From Comamonadaceae bacterium (lineage in GTDB: Bacteria; Pseudomonadota; Gammaproteobacteria; Burkholderiales; Burkholderiaceae_C): a stretch of 64,000 nucleotides of DNA. Below are positions 5,130 through 13,687 of this stretch, piece by piece. A program made the translations under genes and the position numbers. The notes below the pieces were generated by a model that made no database searches, was not told the DNA's origin, and worked only from the letters and a program-made list of their open reading frames with translations. The stretch lies in contig CANEVH010000015.1 of the NCBI GenBank assembly GCA_947442105.1, positions 1-64,000 of the forward strand. Direction: 5' to 3'. Within the stretch, counting starts at the first letter, position 1. The number at the start of each line of letters is the position of its first letter.

Positions 5130-7721
5130 ATGTTGAACGCCTACCGAGCCCATGTTGCCGAGCGCGCCGCGCTGGGTATCCCCCCGCTACCCCTGGATGC
5201 CAAGCAAACCGCCGAACTGATCGAGCTGATCAAGGCGCCCATTGCGGGCGACGAAGCCTTTTTGCTCGACATGCTGACCCACCGCGTGCCCCCAGGCGTG
5301 GACGATGCGGCCAAGGTCAAAGCCTCCTTCTTGGCCGCTGTGGCGCACGGCGATTTGGCTGTCGCCCTGATCTCCAAGTCCAAAGCCACCGAACTGTTGG
5401 GCACCATGGTGGGCGGCTACAACGTCAAGCCCCTGATTGATTTGCTTGACGACGCCGAAGTGGCCTCTGTGGCCGCCGCTGCGCTGAAAAAGACGCTGCT
5501 GATGTTCGATTTTTTCCACGACGTGGAAGTCAAAGCCAAGGCCGGTAACGCGCACGCCAAAGAAGTGATCCAAAGCTGGGCCGATGCCGAGTGGTTCACC
5601 AGCCGCCCCGAAGTGCCGCACACCATCACCGTGACCGTGTTCAAGGTGCCCGGCGAAACCAATACCGACGACCTGTCCCCCGCGCCCGACGCCTGGAGCC
5701 GCCCGGACATTCCGCTGCACTACCTGGCCATGCTGAAAAATACGCGCGAAGGCGCGGCCTTCAAGCCCGAAGAAGACGGCAAGCGCGGCCCCATGCAGTT
5801 CATCGACGACTTGAAGAAAAAAGGCCATCTGGTGGCCTATGTGGGCGACGTGGTGGGCACGGGTTCGAGCCGCAAGTCGGCCACCAACAGCGTGATCTGG
5901 GCCACCGGCCAGGACATTCCTTTTGTGCCCAACAAGCGCTTTGGCGGCGTTACCCTGGGCGGCAAGATCGCCCCCATCTTCTTCAACACGCAAGAAGACT
6001 CCGGCGCCCTGCCGATCGAAGTGAATGTGACGAAGCTGGAAATGGGTGACGTCATTGACGTGCTGCCCTACGAGGGCAAGATTCTGCGCAACGGCGAACT
6101 GGTCGAAACATTTGCCCTCAAAAGCGATGTGCTGTTGGACGAAGTGCGCGCCGGTGGCCGTATCAACCTGATTATTGGCCGCTCGCTGACCGCCAAGGCG
6201 CGTGAGTCTTTGGGCTTGCCCGCGTCCACCGCCTTCCGCCTGCCTTCTGCGCCCATCAGCACCCAGGCTGGCTTCACGCTCGCGCAAAAAATGGTGGGCC
6301 GCGCCGTCGGTTTGCCCGAAGGGCAGGGCGTGCGCCCCGGCACTTACTGCGAACCCAAAATGACCACGGTGGGTTCGCAAGACACCACCGGCCCCATGAC
6401 CCGCGACGAACTCAAAGACCTGGCGTGCCTGGGCTTTAGCGCTGATTTGGTGATGCAGTCCTTCTGCCACACCGCCGCCTACCCCAAGCCCGTGGACGTG
6501 AAAACCCACCGCGAGCTGCCCGCCTTTATCAGCAACCGCGGTGGCGTGGCCCTGCGTCCGGGCGACGGCGTGATCCACTCCTGGCTCAACCGCCTGCTGC
6601 TGCCCGACACCGTGGGCACCGGCGGCGACAGCCATACGCGCTTCCCCATCGGCATCTCCTTCCCCGCAGGCTCTGGCTTGGTAGCGTTTGGGGCTGCCAC
6701 CGGCGTCATGCCCCTGGACATGCCGGAGTCGGTGTTGGTGCGCTTCAAAGGCCAGATGCAGCCCGGCATCACCCTGCGCGACCTCGTGCACGCCATTCCG
6801 CTGTACGCCATCAAGGCCGGTTTGCTCACCGTGGCCAAGGCTGGCAAGGTCAATGTGTTCTCTGGGCGTATTTTGGAAATCGAAGGTTTGCCCGACCTGA
6901 AAGTCGAACAGGCGTTTGAGTTGTCTGACGCCTCGGCCGAGCGTTCAGCCGCCGGTTGCACCGTCAAGCTCAACCCCGCGCCCATCAAGGAATACCTCAC
7001 CAGCAACGTCGTGCTCATGAAAAACATGATCGCCGACGGCTACGCCGACAAGCGCACCCTGGAGCGCCGCATCCAAAAGGTCGAAGCCTGGCTGGCCAAC
7101 CCCAGCTTGCTAGAGGCCGACAAGGACGCCGAGTACGCCGAAGTCATCGAGATCGACCTAAACGACTTGAAAGAGCCGGTGCTGTGCTGCCCCAACGACC
7201 CGGACGATGCCAAGCTGCTCTCGGACGTGGCCGGTGCCAAGATCGACGAGGTGTTTATTGGCTCTTGCATGACCAATATTGGCCACTTCCGCGCGGCCTC
7301 CAAGCTGCTCGAAGGCAAGCGCGATATCCCGGTCAAGCTGTGGATTGCGCCACCCACCAAGATGGACGCGGCTGAATTGACGCGCGAAGGCCATTACGGC
7401 GTGTTCGGCGCCGCTGGCGCGCGCACCGAAATGCCCGGCTGCTCGCTGTGCATGGGCAACCAGGCGCAGGTGCGCGAAGGCGCGACCGTGGTATCCACCT
7501 CAACCCGCAACTTCCCCAACCGCTTGGGCAAGAACACCAATGTTTATTTGGCCTCGGCCGAGCTGGCGGCGATTGCGTCCAAGCTGGGCCGCATTCCCAC
7601 CGTGGCCGAATACCAGGCCGACATGGGCGTGATCAACAAGGACGGCAGCAAAATTTACCAGTACCTGAACTTTGACCAGATCGAGGAATACGCTCACGTC
7701 GCTAAGGGAGTGAGCCCCTGA
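5130..7721 (+). CDS. acnB: Aconitate hydratase B (bifunctional aconitase / 2-methylisocitrate dehydratase)
   Basis: 863-aa [4Fe-4S] aconitase of the AcnB type, isomerising citrate to isocitrate. The order is typical of AcnB: an N-terminal HEAT-like helical domain (to ~160), a swivelling domain (GTGSSRKSA near residue 246), then the catalytic domains. Cluster cysteines are in SFCHTAAYP (about residue 445), GSCMTNIGH and PGCSLCMGN near the C-terminus. Substrate-binding GGDSHTRFP is present. The ribosome site AAGGAG is ideal. It ends the mdh-acnB run; the accessory island starts 209 bases later. Confidence 0.97.
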
Positions 7722-7890
7722 CAGTACGGTGTATTCCCTAAGCCTTGGTGCGTGGGGTGACGCGTCATGCGACAGGTTGACCGTAACCCATGGAAACATG
7801 CATTTCGCGCGTGTTTTCTGGGTGGCAATGATGCGAAACTTGCTCCCCCTTTTCCGTTACCTTTGTTATAGTGCAAGCCGACAAAGAAAC

Positions 7891-7918
7891 TAGGACTTAG
7901 GACTTAGGACTTAGGACT
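7891..7918 (+). repeat. Four tandem copies of the 7-mer TAGGACT
   Basis: Four perfect head-to-tail copies of TAGGACT directly precede the ribosome site (GGAGGGGAAGGA) of the first island gene, so they lie in its 5' leader. Such a tract could change copy number by slippage and alter leader length. It also sits at the left edge of the atypical island. Function is unknown. Confidence 0.85.
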
Positions 7919-7930
7919 GGAGGGGAAGGA

Positions 7931-9853
7931 ATGGCCAGCATTTTTTTTCATAACTCATTTGGGGTTTTCCAAGGTGGTGGAGTCCGCGCAACGGCGTTTG
8001 CCGGAGCATTCCGGGAGACCTATACCGCCGGCATTCGTCACACCTCAGTGGCGGGTACATCGGCTGGCGCGATCGCTGCCGTACTTGTCGCCGCAGGAGC
8101 AACACCCGATCAACTAGAAAAAATTCTCCGGGATCTCGACTTTCAGTCGCTGCTAAGGAAGCCGGACCAGCGCCATAAATTTTCCGAACTCTGGCCTCGT
8201 TTCATAGGAACGTTGCTTGTGCCCTTTGGATGGTTCTCCAAGAAGTTCTACTTGGTGAGTAGGGTCCTTCGCTATGGTGGATGTTATTCGTCCTCAGGAA
8301 TAGAGGAGTGGATTGACGGGCATTTGCAAAAGTTGCTGCAAACTAAGGGCCGAGTGAAGTTCCGTGATCTGCCCATTCCGGCATTCATCGTGGCGACCGA
8401 CCTTAGTAGCAATGTGGCCAAGGTGTGGAGTAGCAGCCAGAATCCGGATGATTCAGTCGCACTTGCGGTGCGCGCATCGTGTTCTATCCCCCTGTTCTTT
8501 CAGCCGGTGCTGGTTGGGGACTCGAGGATTGTCGACGGCGGAATGCTGAGCAACCTACCGACATTCACCTCAGATGGCGACAGCCTCATCAGTTCTCGGC
8601 CGGTGCTGGCATATCGCCTTGTCGGCGCGTCTGCGGCACAGCCGAACTGGACTACGAGCCATTTGTTACGAAGTTTGATCGCCACGGTGTTGAGCGGTGC
8701 CGCAGAACTGCAGATCAGGATGCACAGGCAGGTGACTTGCATCAATATCCAGATCGACAATCTGGCGGCAACTGACTTCGACTTAATTGACAGCGATATG
8801 AAGGGCCATTTGGTTAAAACCGGCGCGGAGGCAGCGCGCAAGTTCTTAGAAAGCGGCATGCTCGGGGTTAAGCAGCAGACCTACTACAGCAGTTCGCTGA
8901 GTTGCCTGGACGAGGTCTATGGAGCGATTGCGTCCCAGAGCGACAAATTACCTGAAGAAGTCCTTATCTCAGAGGTCGCGACTGATTGGTACTGGCAACT
9001 GTTTCCATCCGTTCTATTCTGGCGGACTCGAGGCGTGCCGGTCAGCGTGCTTCTGGAGTCGGCCAAGGGCGATGTGCACAACCTGTCTAAGGAAAGGTCC
9101 CGCCGGTCCAACCTTAAGGGAATGGGGGTTGCCGTTAAGGAAGTCGAGCACATTCCTTTTCAGGCCTATGTGTTCCGGCGTCCCAATCAACGGGCCAGCA
9201 CCGCTGTGCTGTTCACGCAAACGAACCAACATGAGCCGCTCGCCACTCTCTATGAAGGACCTTTGCATCAGACAGTCATCCTAATGCTCGCAAGCAGACT
9301 TGTCGAGAGCGGCATTGTGGCTTCAACTACAGCGTTCCGCCCCAGTCTGGTTCCCGTTTTACCGGATGAGGTCCTGAAAGCGCTTAAAAAAGGCGTGTCG
9401 CAGTACTCGGCGCCCAGTGTACAACTTAGCTGGGAGCGCGTTCCGCTCTCGAAGGCGCGAAGCATCACGAAGCTAGTCCGCGGATTCAAGTACACACAGC
9501 TTCAGATGCTCGTGCAGATGTTGAAGGAGTCCGATATCGAGCCGTTCTCTCCTACTGCGGTTGTGTTGGATGGTGACCGCCATTCTCTTATGGGGCCACC
9601 GGTCTTCGAGCTGGTGGGTAATTCATTCGTTGGGGTCGAAGGCAATACTCGAACGTTATACGCCCACCTTCATGAATATGACGAGATGTTTGGCGTCGTG
9701 GCGAGGGGCGTAACCGATCCACCGCCCGGCGACTCTGTGCTTCTGTCCGAAATGAGCCGAATTGACACTGAGGTGCACATTAATGAGCGTATGCCCGGCT
9801 TCGCATACCATCACTTTCGACGCATTGAAGGTGCATGCCATCCGCATAGATAG
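7931..9853 (+). CDS. Patatin-like phospholipase with long unassigned C-terminal half
   Basis: 640-aa protein. The first ~300 residues are a patatin-type Ser-Asp acyl hydrolase: glycine-rich oxyanion loop QGGGVRA (14-20), nucleophile elbow GTSAG with Ser44, and the catalytic Asp202 in VDGGMLSNLP. No signal peptide is seen, so a cytoplasmic phospholipase acting on the cell's own membrane is plausible. Residues ~330-640 match no family I can name. Part of it (near 350-450) has a pattern faintly like a degenerate PLD-type fold without HxK motifs. First gene of a five-gene run, one base before the next start. G+C is visibly lower than acnB. Patatins are recurrent effectors in phage-defence operons. 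Confidence 0.85.
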   Translation: MASIFFHNSFGVFQGGGVRATAFAGAFRETYTAGIRHTSVAGTSAGAIAAVLVAAGATPDQLEKILRDLDFQSLLRKPDQRHKFSELWPRFIGTLLVPFGWFSKKFYLVSRVLRYGGCYSSSGIEEWIDGHLQKLLQTKGRVKFRDLPIPAFIVATDLSSNVAKVWSSSQNPDDSVALAVRASCSIPLFFQPVLVGDSRIVDGGMLSNLPTFTSDGDSLISSRPVLAYRLVGASAAQPNWTTSHLLRSLIATVLSGAAELQIRMHRQVTCINIQIDNLAATDFDLIDSDMKGHLVKTGAEAARKFLESGMLGVKQQTYYSSSLSCLDEVYGAIASQSDKLPEEVLISEVATDWYWQLFPSVLFWRTRGVPVSVLLESAKGDVHNLSKERSRRSNLKGMGVAVKEVEHIPFQAYVFRRPNQRASTAVLFTQTNQHEPLATLYEGPLHQTVILMLASRLVESGIVASTTAFRPSLVPVLPDEVLKALKKGVSQYSAPSVQLSWERVPLSKARSITKLVRGFKYTQLQMLVQMLKESDIEPFSPTAVVLDGDRHSLMGPPVFELVGNSFVGVEGNTRTLYAHLHEYDEMFGVVARGVTDPPPGDSVLLSEMSRIDTEVHINERMPGFAYHHFRRIEGACHPHR

Positions 9854-9854
9854 C

Positions 9855-10250
9855 ATGCCCAACCTAGTACTCATTCGAGGCTTGCCGGGAAGCGGCAAGT
9901 CCACAATAGCTCGGTCGATGGCTGGGTATGCACATCTGGAAGCCGACATGTATTTCGAATTTTCTAACGGTTATCGCTTCGATCCCGATAAGCTCCAAGA
10001 GGCACATGACTGGTGCTTAGCCGAAACCAGAGCTACGCTCGGACGCGGTTTGAGCGTCGTAGTCGCCAATACGTTCGTGACAAAAGCTGAAATGGAACGG
10101 TATTTTCGCTTGGCGTATCCCACTTCGGTCGTTGAGGCTAAGGGGAACTTTCTCAGCCTGCACAAAGTGGATGCTGCCAAGTTCCAGCAAATGCGCGATT
10201 CCTGGGAACCCATTGAGCCGCCACAGTCGATGGTTCAGCGAGGGCATTGA
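9855..10250 (+). CDS. Small P-loop ATPase, AAA_33 / polynucleotide-kinase-like (N4BP2L1-like)
   Basis: 131-aa cytoplasmic P-loop protein. The Walker A motif GLPGSGKST is at residues 9-17. An acidic LEADMYF strand follows, then an AHDWC...VVVANTF pattern and a C-terminal HKVDAAKFQQMRDSWEP. To my eye this matches the zeta-toxin/AAA_33 class of small kinases related to T4 polynucleotide kinase and animal N4BP2L1. Kinase activity on nucleic acid or nucleotide 5' ends is inferred from family, not shown. The frame is open 31 codons upstream inside the patatin gene. The ATG at 9855, one base after the patatin stop and directly before the P-loop strand, is the natural start. Confidence 0.72.
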   Translation: MPNLVLIRGLPGSGKSTIARSMAGYAHLEADMYFEFSNGYRFDPDKLQEAHDWCLAETRATLGRGLSVVVANTFVTKAEMERYFRLAYPTSVVEAKGNFLSLHKVDAAKFQQMRDSWEPIEPPQSMVQRGH

Positions 10251-10251
10251 G

Positions 10252-10944
10252 TTGGACGCCATAGCCTACTGGACACAGGTTGTATCTGAGTCTGCGGAAG
10301 TCGGCGCGCTTTACATAAGCCGTTACAGGCCCGCTCCGAAGTTTCCGGAGGGGTTCGGTACGGATGGTGACTACCGTCTGCTGGCCGAAGAAGCTCAACA
10401 AAATGCGTTGCGTGATGAAAAGCCATATTGGGACGCGCTTTTGCGGATTGCCGCACGAAAAGGGATGCTGACTGAAGATCTTCTGGCCCGCGCATCGAAG
10501 TCTCATCCAAAGGAAATGCACTTGCTACCAATTGCCGCGCCGGTGATTAGGGCTGGGGAACTAGGCTCTTTCGTTACTCAAACTATGAAGGACGAAGTGA
10601 TAGTGATGGCGTCGAGGGTAAGTTTGATGAACGGTCAGACCAAGCACTTCCCAATGATGGACCTGCGCTGCGAAGAAAATGCCGCTTCTTTGCACTCCGT
10701 GGAGCGACTCGCCAACTGGCTGCTTCCCTGCGGCTATGCACTGTTCGCTTCCGGCCGTTCCTACCACCTAATCGGTACTGAACTGGTCTCCGAACTGGAA
10801 CTCTCGAAGTTCCTAATTCATTCGCTTTATGCCGGAGATTTGATCGACCGCAAATATGTCGCCCATCACCTGGAGCGTGGGTTCTGTACGTTGCGGATTT
10901 CTCCTTCTGGGCAATTCGGCAGTCCTGTCTGGATCCGACAATGA
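10252..10944 (+). CDS. Unknown protein, possible divergent primase-like (AEP) fold
   Basis: About 230 aa. The frame runs further upstream but only as overlap with the kinase gene. No ATG fits, so TTG at 10252, two bases after the kinase stop and preceded by GCGAGGG, is proposed; ATT at 10246 is a weaker alternative. The C-terminal half shows a hydrophobic strand ending MMDLRCEE (Asp137), then SGRSYH (167-172), then DRKYVAHHLERGFCTLRIS. This order resembles the acidic, sxH and terminal LR-S motifs of archaeo-eukaryotic primase/primpol domains, but the acidic dyad is not classical. It overlaps the next start by four bases (ATGA), suggesting translational coupling. Function unproven. Confidence 0.55.
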   Translation: MDAIAYWTQVVSESAEVGALYISRYRPAPKFPEGFGTDGDYRLLAEEAQQNALRDEKPYWDALLRIAARKGMLTEDLLARASKSHPKEMHLLPIAAPVIRAGELGSFVTQTMKDEVIVMASRVSLMNGQTKHFPMMDLRCEENAASLHSVERLANWLLPCGYALFASGRSYHLIGTELVSELELSKFLIHSLYAGDLIDRKYVAHHLERGFCTLRISPSGQFGSPVWIRQ

Positions 10945-12662
10945 ACCTGAAATCTTGGGTTGAAGAAACCTTTCAGACGTTGACCTTTGGCCGCGTGCCA
11001 AACCGTCAACAATTGCGGGCTGCACTCAGTGGCTCGCCGATCCCTGAGTCGGTCGCGCTAGTGTTATTGTTCGGAAGCGCGGCACGGGCTGAAACTGCAA
11101 ACGATATCGACATTGTCGTACTCGTTGAGGACGGGTCCGGTCCATTTCACAACTACGAGCGACTTGAGTTCAATGGCATCAAGCTCGATCTGAATATTGT
11201 CGATACTGAGTGGCTCGCACGAGCGCTGCTGGATCTAGAGCAAAGCCATTGGCTTTCGGAGTCGTGTGCAGTGTTCGCCAGGTCCGAAAGCTGGTTGGAG
11301 CGCTGGATTGGGGCTGCGAACAACTACTGGACGATTGAGGCGGTCAAGAGGAGGCGTAATCAATTTGCCGATTTGATCGAAAGCTATGCTGATGCGTCGC
11401 GCAGTGCGTTTCGGTTGGGGCTAGTGCGAGTGTCCCGACTTGCCGCGCACGAGGCCGCACGTGCCTATGTTTGCGATCTAATGGATCAGGATGGTGCCGC
11501 TACCCATTCGCACGGACTAGTCGCGCGTTGTCTTCTAGACGGTGGGCTGGACAAGGCGCCTCCCCACATCAGGGCACATCTCGAGAGGTGTCTTTCAAAT
11601 AATGCATCTTCAATCGATGGCTACCTGGCGTTGCGCAGGAGTCTGTCCGCGTTCAGACGTGCAGCGACAACACTTCAGCTTCTCGGACTTAGCTCACTGC
11701 ACTCGCATCGCCTTGCGGTAACGGCGCTAAGTCAACAATTGCCCACCCATGGAACCGAGATTGAGGCGCTGATATCGTCTTTGGATGTCGAAGACGCACT
11801 ACCCATCGAATGCCCCTCGCAACTGACGGAATCGTTTGCCTACACTGACCGAAGATTCCCGGTCGAAAGGCGTAGTATCCAAGAGTTATCCGTCCCGGTT
11901 TTGGGGGGCATCGAGGGCGCACGCTGGGTCGAGCGAACCCAGGACCGCATGAAAGTGATCGTTAACACTGGCGGCTGCAGGACTCCCACATGCAACTTCT
12001 GCAGTCTTCCTAAATTTGCGCGTCGGCTGCCTCGTCGCGAGCCCGCGGAGGTGGTCCGGGCTGCGCTGAGGTTGCATGAGGTGAACGGCTTGTCGCTCTA
12101 TAACGACGGGAATTTTCTCAATGAAGCGGAGATTTCCGTCCAAGACCGCAAGCTTCTTTGCGCTGCAATCTTGGAGAGGCGAATTCGAAGTTTAACGATC
12201 GAGTCGGCTCCTCGATTTATCACCGAGCGCAAGCTCCGCGAGGTGCAGGCGTGGAGTGGCGTGTCCGAGCTTGTCGTTGCAATGGGGTTGCAGATGACGG
12301 GAAGCTTGACTGCCGCGCGTCTTCTGGGGCGGCCCGATGTCGATTCGGTTTTCAGCTTTGCGATCGATGAAATCCATGCTGCGGGCGCGGCTGTGCGCCT
12401 GTACGTCCTTCATGGGTATGGCCGCGACTTCGCTTTCTGGGATCAACGGTTGGTCGAGTCCATCGAATGGGCCAGTGCGAGAGGTGTCGAGCGCGTCAGC
12501 ATTTGTCCTTACGTAGATGCGAGCGGTGCACCACTCGATCAAGCGCACGTGGCTCATCTGGAGGTGGTCGTCCGCGCGCTGTCTGTTGGGGAAGGCATGA
12601 CCGTTGAACTTGTTGGGCGCGGACTGACGTCTTGCGGAACGGGCGCGCGCGGTGGCAGCTGA
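10941..12662 (+). CDS. Fusion of nucleotidyltransferase domain and radical SAM domain
   Basis: 573 aa. Residues ~35-110 form a polymerase-beta/MNT-type nucleotidyltransferase: LFGSAAR (43-49) and the metal-binding DID at 55-57. A helical linker (~110-290) follows. From ~335 there is a radical SAM domain whose cluster cysteines are C346, C351 and C354 (CX4CX2C instead of CX3CX2C). Downstream motifs YNDGNFLNEAEI, TIESAPRF and a VVAMGLQ strand resemble the Elp3-like/RaSEA radical SAM group that acts on tRNA in archaea. This comparison is from memory. I do not know a named protein with this fusion. It overlaps the genes on both sides, so it belongs to one operon. Substrate unknown. Confidence 0.75.
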   Translation: MNLKSWVEETFQTLTFGRVPNRQQLRAALSGSPIPESVALVLLFGSAARAETANDIDIVVLVEDGSGPFHNYERLEFNGIKLDLNIVDTEWLARALLDLEQSHWLSESCAVFARSESWLERWIGAANNYWTIEAVKRRRNQFADLIESYADASRSAFRLGLVRVSRLAAHEAARAYVCDLMDQDGAATHSHGLVARCLLDGGLDKAPPHIRAHLERCLSNNASSIDGYLALRRSLSAFRRAATTLQLLGLSSLHSHRLAVTALSQQLPTHGTEIEALISSLDVEDALPIECPSQLTESFAYTDRRFPVERRSIQELSVPVLGGIEGARWVERTQDRMKVIVNTGGCRTPTCNFCSLPKFARRLPRREPAEVVRAALRLHEVNGLSLYNDGNFLNEAEISVQDRKLLCAAILERRIRSLTIESAPRFITERKLREVQAWSGVSELVVAMGLQMTGSLTAARLLGRPDVDSVFSFAIDEIHAAGAAVRLYVLHGYGRDFAFWDQRLVESIEWASARGVERVSICPYVDASGAPLDQAHVAHLEVVVRALSVGEGMTVELVGRGLTSCGTGARGGS

Positions 12663-13371
12663 CCAAGATATCGATATCCCATGGACAGAAGTGCCGACCT
12701 TCGACGGCACCATCAACGTACGCCGATTCTATGAAGCTACCCTTCCTGTGATCTCGCAATTGCACCATCAAGCAATGGCGCATCAGTCAGTGTCGAGCGA
12801 GCTTCGCACTTTGCGCGAACGTGTGGGCACGATGCCTGCGGAAGTCGTTTGCGACCTAGGTTGCGGCTTCGGGGATTGGGCCTCTGTCTATGGCCCAACA
12901 GCCAACCGAATCCACCTTGTTGACTTATCGACTTCAATCCTGGCGCGCGCCATGGAATATGTGTCTTTCTGGGCGCCTGCATCCAACGTCACTTGCAGGG
13001 TCTTCGACCTCTTTAGCGAGACTGACTGGCAGAGCCTGGCTGGTTTCCGAATGTACCTGCTAGCCTTTGTTGTAGGGCATGCAACCGAACCCCAGCGCTT
13101 CGGTGCGCTGGCGTCCTTGAGAAAGGTTGTTCGTAGTGGCGATAGGGTTGTTTTGATCGATTCGCTACAGCCCGGTCCTTTGCAGAATACCGACGCCGTA
13201 CGCTACGTCGACCTCGACGGACACACGGTGGGAGCCTTCAAGCACTACTTCTTCCGCGATGAGGTGTTGGCGCTTGTACGCCAGGCCGGATTCGAGGTTG
13301 CTTCGTCTTGGTGGGGACGTCGCTATTTCCTAGTCGAGCTTAGCTTGCCGCTTAAATATACAGTGAGTTGA
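12652..13371 (+). CDS. Class I SAM-dependent methyltransferase
   Basis: 239-aa cytoplasmic methyltransferase. Motif I CDLGCGFGDW (about residues 66-75) binds SAM, and IHLVDLS gives the acidic end of strand 2. The closing YFFRDEVLALVRQAGFEV is typical of small-molecule or nucleotide methyltransferases of the Methyltransf_11/25 type. It starts at GTG, overlapping the previous gene by 11 bases, so it is translated with the nucleotidyltransferase/radical-SAM gene and is the last gene of the island. Substrate cannot be predicted. No DNA methyltransferase NPPY/DPPY motif is present. Confidence 0.8.
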   Translation: MAADQDIDIPWTEVPTFDGTINVRRFYEATLPVISQLHHQAMAHQSVSSELRTLRERVGTMPAEVVCDLGCGFGDWASVYGPTANRIHLVDLSTSILARAMEYVSFWAPASNVTCRVFDLFSETDWQSLAGFRMYLLAFVVGHATEPQRFGALASLRKVVRSGDRVVLIDSLQPGPLQNTDAVRYVDLDGHTVGAFKHYFFRDEVLALVRQAGFEVASSWWGRRYFLVELSLPLKYTVS

Positions 13372-13432
13372 TAGAACACTGATTGCATTGGATGCTTACC
13401 GCATAGCCGAAACCGACAGGTCTTTGATTAGA

Positions 13433-13450
13433 ATTCGCTATATAGCGAAT
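13433..13450. repeat. Perfect 18-bp palindrome (ATTCGCTATATAGCGAAT)
   Basis: The two halves, 9 bases each, are exact reverse complements with no central loop, so this looks like a protein-binding site more than a terminator: a centre-symmetric palindrome without loop or T-tract makes a poor intrinsic terminator. It lies 62 bases after the last island gene. Confidence 0.7.
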
Positions 13451-13600
13451 AGAAGACTAGGTGCTAGGGAAAGACAGTTTCAGTATCAAGAAATTGACAA
13501 AAACGCTCACCGCCTGATCATAGGTAGGTCGCGAGCTTGTAACTCTTCGTTATTGGCTATTCAGTAATATATAAATGCAAACTACTAAATAAATGAAAAG

Positions 13601-13626
13601 AAAAAAAGGACACCGAGGTGTCCTTT
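13601..13626 (-). terminator. Intrinsic terminator of the rpmB-rpmG transcript
   Basis: Stem AAAGGACACC / GGTGTCCTTT with a 2-base centre. On the minus strand the stem runs into a T-tract (seven As on the plus strand from 13601). It lies 62 bases past the rpmG stop. It could also stop leftover transcription from the island on the plus strand. Confidence 0.8.
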
Positions 13627-13687
13627 ATCTAAGAGCGTTTTGACTCAAGTAGCTGCCTCATAAAGACAACTAAGGACTTAACAAGTC

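What the first reader, a model, noticed from the sequence alone, without database searches (positions are those of the whole stretch)
7931..13371. Five-gene accessory operon: patatin, small kinase, primase-like, NTase/radical-SAM fusion, methyltransferase
Seen: five genes on one strand with 1-4 base gaps or overlaps of 4 and 11 bases, so one operon. Sampled G+C differs from core genes (29 of 60 at 9481-9540 against 42 of 60 at 5641-5700). The set joins a membrane-attack candidate (patatin) with four proteins of nucleic-acid or nucleotide type. I do not recognise it as CBASS, Dnd, Dpd, BREX or another named system: there is no CD-NTase, HORMA, Cap2/3, dnd or restriction gene. Inference: a defence or conflict system in which a nucleotidyl/radical-SAM/methyl modification marks or senses nucleic acid and the patatin kills the cell. 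A small-molecule or RNA-repair pathway is the alternative.
Basis: partly seen in the sequence, partly recalled or inferred. Interest (0 to 1): 0.88.

Follow-up and report, generated by a model that had tools for sequence, protein, structure and literature searches.

The report
Patatin–primase defence-like operon
A foreign-looking bacterial gene cluster pairs a likely membrane-attacking enzyme with a primase-like protein, and the same pair sits together in two other bacteria, so it is probably a rare self-destruct defence against phages that still needs an experimental test.

Summary
Five genes (7931-13371) form one tight, low-G+C operon, absent from the same site in one same-genus genome. The effector is a patatin fused to an inactive HKD (phospholipase-D-like) domain and a C-terminal domain that may have the nucleotide-binding ParB/sulfiredoxin fold (weak model).

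The five-gene set was found nowhere else, but its core was. Relatives of the whole 640-aa patatin protein (30-37% identity) were found in five other genomes or plasmids. In two the next gene is an AEP-like (primase-like) protein, as in the window. In three the patatin is fused to, or overlaps, a nucleotidyltransferase. Three of the five lie beside defence genes (type ISP or type I restriction; HepT pair with Cas genes). AEP-like genes also pair with dGTPase-type HD genes (four loci) and SIR2 (one). Such mix-and-match is typical of abortive-infection modules.

Best reading: an effector-plus-nucleotide-enzyme suicide system with CBASS-like logic but no CD-NTase match, extended here by a kinase, a nucleotidyltransferase/radical-SAM fusion and a methyltransferase. 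The chemistry is inferred, not shown. New variant of a known kind.

The parts
7755..13687 (.). approximate extent of the inserted accessory segment, between the acnB (5130-7721) terminator region and the rpmG/rpmB region
   Evidence: in same-genus L026 (G911) the acnB match ends at 7250 and the homologue of window 13688 starts at 7344, roughly 90 bp apart; boundaries by eye
7891..7918 (+). 4.0 perfect copies of TAGGACT just upstream of the ribosome-binding site of the patatin gene; possible expression switch
   Evidence: TRF
7931..9853 (+). effector: patatin (aa 12-211; Ser44, Asp202) - inactive HKD/PLD-like domain (Pfam match aa 353-458) - possible ParB/sulfiredoxin-like C-terminal domain (about aa 490-595, tentative)
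   Evidence: PF01734 1.1e-31, PF24402 9.6e-6; catalytic residues kept in 6 of 6, HxKx4D absent in 6 of 6; fold matches
9855..10250 (+). small P-loop kinase, polynucleotide-kinase-like (AAA_33), Walker A GLPGSGKST
   Evidence: PF13671 1.9e-12; TIGR01663 PNK 1.4e-5 but 23.7 bits against 502.8; weak PNKP chains E 0.07
10252..10944 (+). AEP-like (archaeo-eukaryotic primase 1D-like) protein; alternative start 10213
   Evidence: PF24387 1.8e-23; family-invariant residues kept; AEP-like gene next to patatin in L048 and L068
10941..12662 (+). Pol-beta-type nucleotidyltransferase fused to a RaSEA-like radical-SAM domain (CX4CX2C)
   Evidence: PF18765 8.5e-4; TIGR01210 2.9e-11, aa 334-490; 31% to a Streptomyces radical-SAM protein with the same cysteine spacing
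12652..13371 (+). class I SAM-dependent methyltransferase
   Evidence: PF13649 7.5e-7

Best explanation
It is a rare abortive-infection-type system. The killer is the patatin phospholipase, predicted to hydrolyse membrane lipids through Ser44/Asp202. Its C-terminal iHKD and ParB/Srx-like domains are the predicted switch that holds it inactive until a nucleotide ligand or nucleotidylated signal binds. The partner is a nucleotide-handling enzyme, the AEP-like protein here and a GGWxRD-type NTase in the other branch, which detects infection-linked nucleic acid and makes or passes on that signal. At this locus a polynucleotide-kinase-like protein, an NTase/radical-SAM fusion and a methyltransferase have been added; they most likely process or tailor the nucleic-acid end or nucleotide that is sensed. 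Shown: domain content, conserved active sites, core pairing in unrelated genomes, partner exchange, defence-gene neighbours of relatives, accessory insertion. Inferred: anti-phage role, signal synthesis, ligand binding, membrane attack, and the roles of kinase, radical SAM and methyltransferase.
Against: No experiment. The five-gene set is known from one genome. 'AEP 1D-like' keeps one aspartate where primases usually have a DxD pair (recalled), so it may bind rather than synthesise. The ParB/Srx reading rests on a weak model (mean pLDDT 55.8, four sequences), Foldseek E-values near 0.1 and a table that does not give the aligned range; the second aligner barely tested that part. The L068 neighbours tested are metabolic (ABC transporter, formamidase, carbon-nitrogen hydrolase) and no defence gene was noticed near the window operon (by eye). 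The patatin profile is closest to PlpD (2.1e-19), ahead of VipD and ExoU, and matches cUMP-AMP- or cGAMP-activated phospholipases only weakly (3.9e-6, 0.0045). The best NCBIfam match is the T4SS effector VpdC, 75.5 bits against a cut-off of 1000.
Confidence: 0.5

Rival explanations
1. Toxin-antitoxin logic: the patatin is a toxin kept silent because the NTase or AEP-like partner nucleotidylates or binds it; loss of the partner on infection frees it.
For: One tight gene pair or fusion of a predicted toxic enzyme with an NTase; the MNT/HepT systems, one of which lies next to L008, use an NTase antitoxin (mechanism recalled).
Against: In L057 and L058 NTase and patatin are one polypeptide, so differential loss is hard; AEP-like genes also pair with dGTPase-type and SIR2 genes; the window NTase scores 15.6 bits against 60 for MntA.
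Confidence: 0.2
2. The AEP-like protein is a nucleic-acid sensor (it recognises primed or damaged DNA/RNA of the invader), not a signal maker, and activates the patatin by direct contact; kinase, NTase and methyltransferase process the nucleic-acid ends.
For: Single catalytic aspartate; AEP-like genes beside several unrelated predicted effectors; polynucleotide-kinase-like p2.
Against: Replacement by an intact-looking NTase (GGWxRD, DxD) in the other branch suggests a catalytic partner.
Confidence: 0.15
3. RNA-repair or tRNA-modification pathway, the patatin being a fail-safe or unrelated.
For: Polynucleotide-kinase-like p2, RaSEA-like radical SAM (TIGR01210), NTase and methyltransferase are an RNA-end or tRNA-type set.
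Against: Scores far below Pnkp, Hen1 and RaSEA cut-offs (11.3/750, 14/340, 43.2/212); in the five relatives the patatin's direct partners are only AEP-like or NTase proteins.
Confidence: 0.1
4. Small-molecule biosynthesis operon (nucleoside-like product).
For: The radical-SAM relatives found in plasmids are in Streptomyces; the one opened lies in a cluster with P450, SHMT, glycosyltransferase and carbamoyltransferase genes.
Against: Similarity covers only 33% of the query; no transporter, resistance or scaffold gene in the operon; the patatin-AEP pair occurs without the other enzymes in L048 and L068.
Confidence: 0.05

Closest known systems
CBASS with a patatin (CapV-type) effector
   Same: Patatin phospholipase effector next to a nucleotide-polymerising or nucleotidyl-transferring enzyme; compact accessory operon
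   Different: No CD-NTase match; patatin far below the CBASS_lipase cut-off (22/200 bits) with extra iHKD and C-terminal domains; AEP-like or GGWxRD-type NTase partner
Pfam AEP-like PF24387 and iHKD PF24402 proteins
   Same: Direct family matches; both families belong to the proteins found here
   Different: No paper describing these families was found in the held library; the patatin-iHKD-C-terminal architecture paired with AEP-like was not found described
Type VII toxin-antitoxin MntA/HepT
   Same: Pol-beta NTase paired with a toxic enzyme
   Different: Toxin is a patatin, not HEPN; the NTase is fused to radical SAM and below the MntA cut-off
dGTPase antiviral defence (recalled; paper not held)
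   Same: Short AEP-like genes form pairs with dGTPase-type HD genes, so the same partner family may serve a dNTP-depleting effector
   Different: Membrane-attacking effector here; long AEP form with an N-terminal extension shared with L004, L048 and L068
Archaeosine synthase radical-SAM subunit RaSEA (TIGR01210)
   Same: Nearest named radical-SAM family in the libraries searched
   Different: 43 bits against a cut-off of 212; fused to an NTase; in a bacterium

Membership tests
CBASS | CD-NTase (SMODS-type) synthase | tested here: not met
   Pfam, PADLOC and NCBIfam at E up to 1 list no CD-NTase family for the five proteins
CBASS | CBASS-type phospholipase effector | tested here: not met
   NF041079 CBASS_lipase 22 bits, cut-off 200; PADLOC Effector Phospholipase 2.4e-8; patatin domain itself present
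CBASS | Cap2/Cap3, HORMA or TRIP13 accessory genes (not in all types) | tested here: not met
   not among the five genes; TRIP13 hit to the kinase P-loop only, E 0.0097
Patatin-like phospholipase (PF01734) | domain match with Ser-Asp dyad | tested here: met
   111 bits, cut-off 27.7; GTSxG and DGG kept in 6 of 6
iHKD (PF24402) | domain match, HKD motif absent | tested here: met
   window protein 26.1 bits against 27 by protein scan but 30.2 and over the cut-off by genome scan; relatives over the cut-off in 4 of 5 (L008 60.4, L058 81.9, L057 70, L068 38.5) and just under it in L048 (26.7); no HxKx4D in 6 of 6
AEP-like (PF24387) | domain match over cut-off with family-invariant S/H/D/SGxSxH residues | tested here: met
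   83.3 bits, cut-off 27; alignment of 8
ParB/sulfiredoxin nucleotide-binding fold | fold of the C-terminal domain | tested here: inconclusive
   Foldseek sulfiredoxin 6ky4 and ParB 6sdk, 7bnk, 5k5a at prob 0.90-0.97 but E 0.07-0.22, aligned range not given, on a pLDDT 55.8 model; no PDB sequence match below E 0.4
Type VII TA (MntA/HepT) | MntA-type NTase and HEPN toxin | tested here: not met
   NF047752 15.6 bits, cut-off 60; no HEPN match
MADS | mad1-mad8 gene set (recalled) | tested here: not met
   only weak mad8 (8e-6, P-loop) and mad2 (1.9e-4, methyltransferase core) matches
Pnkp/Hen1 RNA repair | Pnkp and bacterial Hen1 proteins | tested here: not met
   TIGR04075 11.3/750 and TIGR04074 14/340 bits
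Prokaryotic viperin | viperin-type radical SAM with CX3CX2C (recalled) | tested here: inconclusive
   cysteine spacing is CX4CX2C; no viperin family listed, but presence of such a model in the libraries was not checked
Any of these as anti-phage defence | protection against phage | not testable with these tools
   needs an experiment

The most novel reading that the evidence does not exclude
A new class of nucleotide-signalling immunity in which a primase-like (AEP) enzyme or a CCA-type NTase replaces the CD-NTase and a ParB/Srx-like plus dead-HKD sensor gates a patatin; at this locus the messenger is phosphorylated, radical-SAM-rearranged and methylated, i.e. a chemically tailored second messenger.
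Probability: 0.25. Interest if true: 0.9.

Novelty: new variant of a known kind. Interest (0 to 1): 0.66.

Why it matters
If right, nucleotide-enzyme/effector immunity extends beyond CD-NTases and Cas10 to primase-like enzymes with interchangeable killers (patatin, dGTPase, SIR2). It would give the Pfam families AEP-like and iHKD a testable role, and offer a radical-SAM/methyltransferase locus in which to look for an unusual modified nucleotide.

Tried and rejected
Direct search for the five-gene set. Protein 4: phages none; plasmids only two remote Streptomyces radical-SAM pieces; viral contigs 1 pattern match, 0 relatives; genome contigs 18 pattern matches, 0 relatives (exact 8-residue patterns, so only close relatives could be seen). 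Methyltransferase in plasmids: none. Patatin, AEP and patatin C-terminus in viral contigs: no relatives. The kinase was not searched on its own in other genomes. AEP-like in plasmids: one record with the window and L048 queries (M. chubuense), one with L005 (Pantoea). Kovacikia C-terminus in plasmids: itself only.

Of 8 genome-contig loci with the C-terminal signature, 3 encode relatives (L043, L046, L048) and 5 were dropped as chance (L041, L042, L044, L045, L047). The viral hit L064 gave no match. iHKD family search: 2 of 299 genomes, 0 of 14 controls; one is the window, the other (G043, E 1.7e-4, below cut-off) was dropped as reading-frame noise among housekeeping genes. AEP-like family search: the control rang in 1 of 14 genomes, below cut-off (B. 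subtilis). C-terminal profile: 3 of 180, being the centre, G1211 and G1265 (E 5.3e-4, dropped). Whole-protein profile: 1 of 330, the centre itself. H19, a plasmid patatin, has no such context.

The full-length patatin model was poor (pLDDT 44.9) and was not searched. No PDB sequence match for the NTase profile, the AEP profile, the methyltransferase, or p4 beyond noise. The annotated phosphoribosyltransferase of L004 has no Pfam match at E 0.001.

Literature. Ten searches for these families or this architecture found no description among held papers; most subscription papers are not held. Passages seen by term search: PMC7159879, PMC12419801, PMC10853773, PMC12839542, PMC7824862; none showed this architecture. 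Not held.

Full report
OBSERVATION. The five ORFs, their overlaps and their strand are as described. The set stands out in base composition: G+C 0.554 against about 0.61 on both sides, and GC3 0.58-0.62 against 0.64-0.81 in nine core genes. The rest of the window reads as housekeeping genes (by eye). It lies between acnB (5130-7721) and the rpmG/rpmB region (gene names by eye). In same-genus genome G911 (L026) the end of acnB and the homologue of window 13688 are roughly 90 bp apart. I fetched 14 stretches around the rpmG/rpmB match in same-genus genomes (one search had matches in 27 of 31 genomes). None of the 14 holds a match to any of the five proteins at E 1e-4; only 1 of 14 (L026) also holds acnB, so only that one shows the empty site itself.

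THE PROTEINS. Protein 1: patatin (PF01734, 111 bits) and iHKD (PF24402; 26.1 bits in the protein scan, just under the cut-off of 27, and 30.2 and over it). Its best NCBIfam match is VpdC, far below cut-off (75.5/1000), i.e. a generic patatin match. Protein 2: AAA_33 P-loop kinase with weak polynucleotide-kinase similarity. Protein 3: AEP-like PF24387, 83.3 bits. Protein 4: Pol-beta NTase (weak, 8.5e-4) fused to a radical-SAM domain nearest to RaSEA (2.9e-11 but 43 bits against 212), with cysteines spaced CX4CX2C as in a Streptomyces relative. Protein 5: class I methyltransferase. PADLOC gives only weak matches; the best is Effector Phospholipase, 2.4e-8.

RELATIVES OF THE EFFECTOR. Kovacikia minuta plasmid L008 encodes a relative along the whole protein. 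A signature shared by the two C-termini (PP[VIL][FY]E-x9-EGNxR) was searched in genome contigs (84,980 species by the tool's description): 8 hits, 3 real (Deltaproteobacteria UBA1386 L048, Ramlibacter L043/L057, Caballeronia L046/L058). A profile search of 180 genomes of the Caballeronia family added G1211 (L068); a further 330 genomes of its order added none. With the window this makes six proteins at 30-78% pairwise identity, all with intact patatin catalytic motifs and none with an HKD motif in the middle domain. By Pfam protein scan the iHKD domain is over its cut-off in L008, L057, L058 and L068 and just under it in L048 (26.7) and the window (26.1, against 27).

PARTNERS. L048: patatin then AEP-like, 10 bp apart. 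L068: patatin then AEP-like, overlapping ORFs. L008: a separate NTase gene overlapping the patatin start by 4 bp. L057 and L058: the same NTase type fused N-terminally. The NTase carries GGWxRD and DxD in 3 of 3, as in CCA/polyA-type enzymes (recalled); Pfam only hints at PolyA_pol (E 0.053, for the L008 protein). The tree splits AEP-linked from NTase-linked proteins at 100/100, with the caveat that two rows are near-copies and 47 of 500 label shuffles were as clustered. The full window set was not seen elsewhere: protein 4 is in 1 of 300 (own), 1 of 250 (own) and 0 of 5 genomes or records of relatives, one of these a plasmid only.

CONTEXT. Defence-type neighbours by Pfam: L058 type ISP restriction enzyme, HATPase protein, HNH_2; L048 HNH_5 and PIN_12, and HsdM and HsdS further along the contig (L063); L008 Polbeta/HepT pair, Cas1, Cas2, Cas6 and Cas4. 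L057 lies near a phage tape-measure gene (PF20155). The three L068 neighbours tested are metabolic. So 3 of 5 relatives have defence neighbours, one lies by a phage gene and one shows neither. Among the eight AEP-like loci examined, four sit next to a dGTPase-type HD gene (L005, L006, L061, L062; in L062 also a deaminase), one in a group with SIR2, DprA-type and annotated-phosphoribosyltransferase genes (L004), and three with the patatin (window, L048, L068). dGTPases and SIR2 NADases are known anti-phage effectors (recalled, not checked here). One partner family serving unrelated candidate killers is the main reason for reading the patatin as an effector.

MECHANISM. I propose an effector-switch system: patatin kills; the iHKD plus ParB/Srx-like part reads a nucleotide-type signal; the AEP-like protein or NTase supplies it or senses nucleic acid; kinase, NTase/radical SAM and methyltransferase are extensions at this locus. 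Rivals are NTase/AEP as antitoxin, AEP as a pure nucleic-acid sensor, RNA repair, and biosynthesis. Nothing here distinguishes signal synthesis from nucleotidylation or direct sensing.

VERDICT. Real, accessory, probably defensive, not CBASS by definition though it may work like it. The two-part core is supported by independent co-occurrence; the five-gene form is so far known from one genome. New variant of a known kind.

Noticed in passing
window 7891-7918: Four perfect tandem copies of TAGGACT just upstream of the ribosome-binding site of the patatin gene, with a further AGGACTTA at 13673 near the right end of the insert; possible phase-variable expression or an insertion scar.
   Followed up: partly
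L005, L006, L061 (6874-8618), L062 (301-2986): Short AEP-like genes form pairs with dGTPase-type HD genes, in L062 also beside a cytidine/dCMP deaminase-family gene: a separate candidate nucleotide-depletion system.
   Followed up: partly
L004 4587-8531 (Mycolicibacterium chubuense plasmid): SIR2, DprA-type, phosphoribosyltransferase-annotated and AEP-like genes in a row beside integrases and an IS256 transposase: another AEP-linked candidate conflict operon.
   Followed up: no
L003 7836-8951 (Streptomyces sp. F8 pFRL5): Radical-SAM protein with the same CX4CX2C motif in a cluster with P450, SHMT, glycosyltransferase and carbamoyltransferase genes; may hint at the chemistry of this radical-SAM group.
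   Followed up: no
L058 366-11392 (Caballeronia fortuita): Defence-type island: type ISP restriction enzyme, hydrolase-like ORF (by eye), HATPase protein, NTase-patatin fusion, HNH endonuclease.
   Followed up: partly
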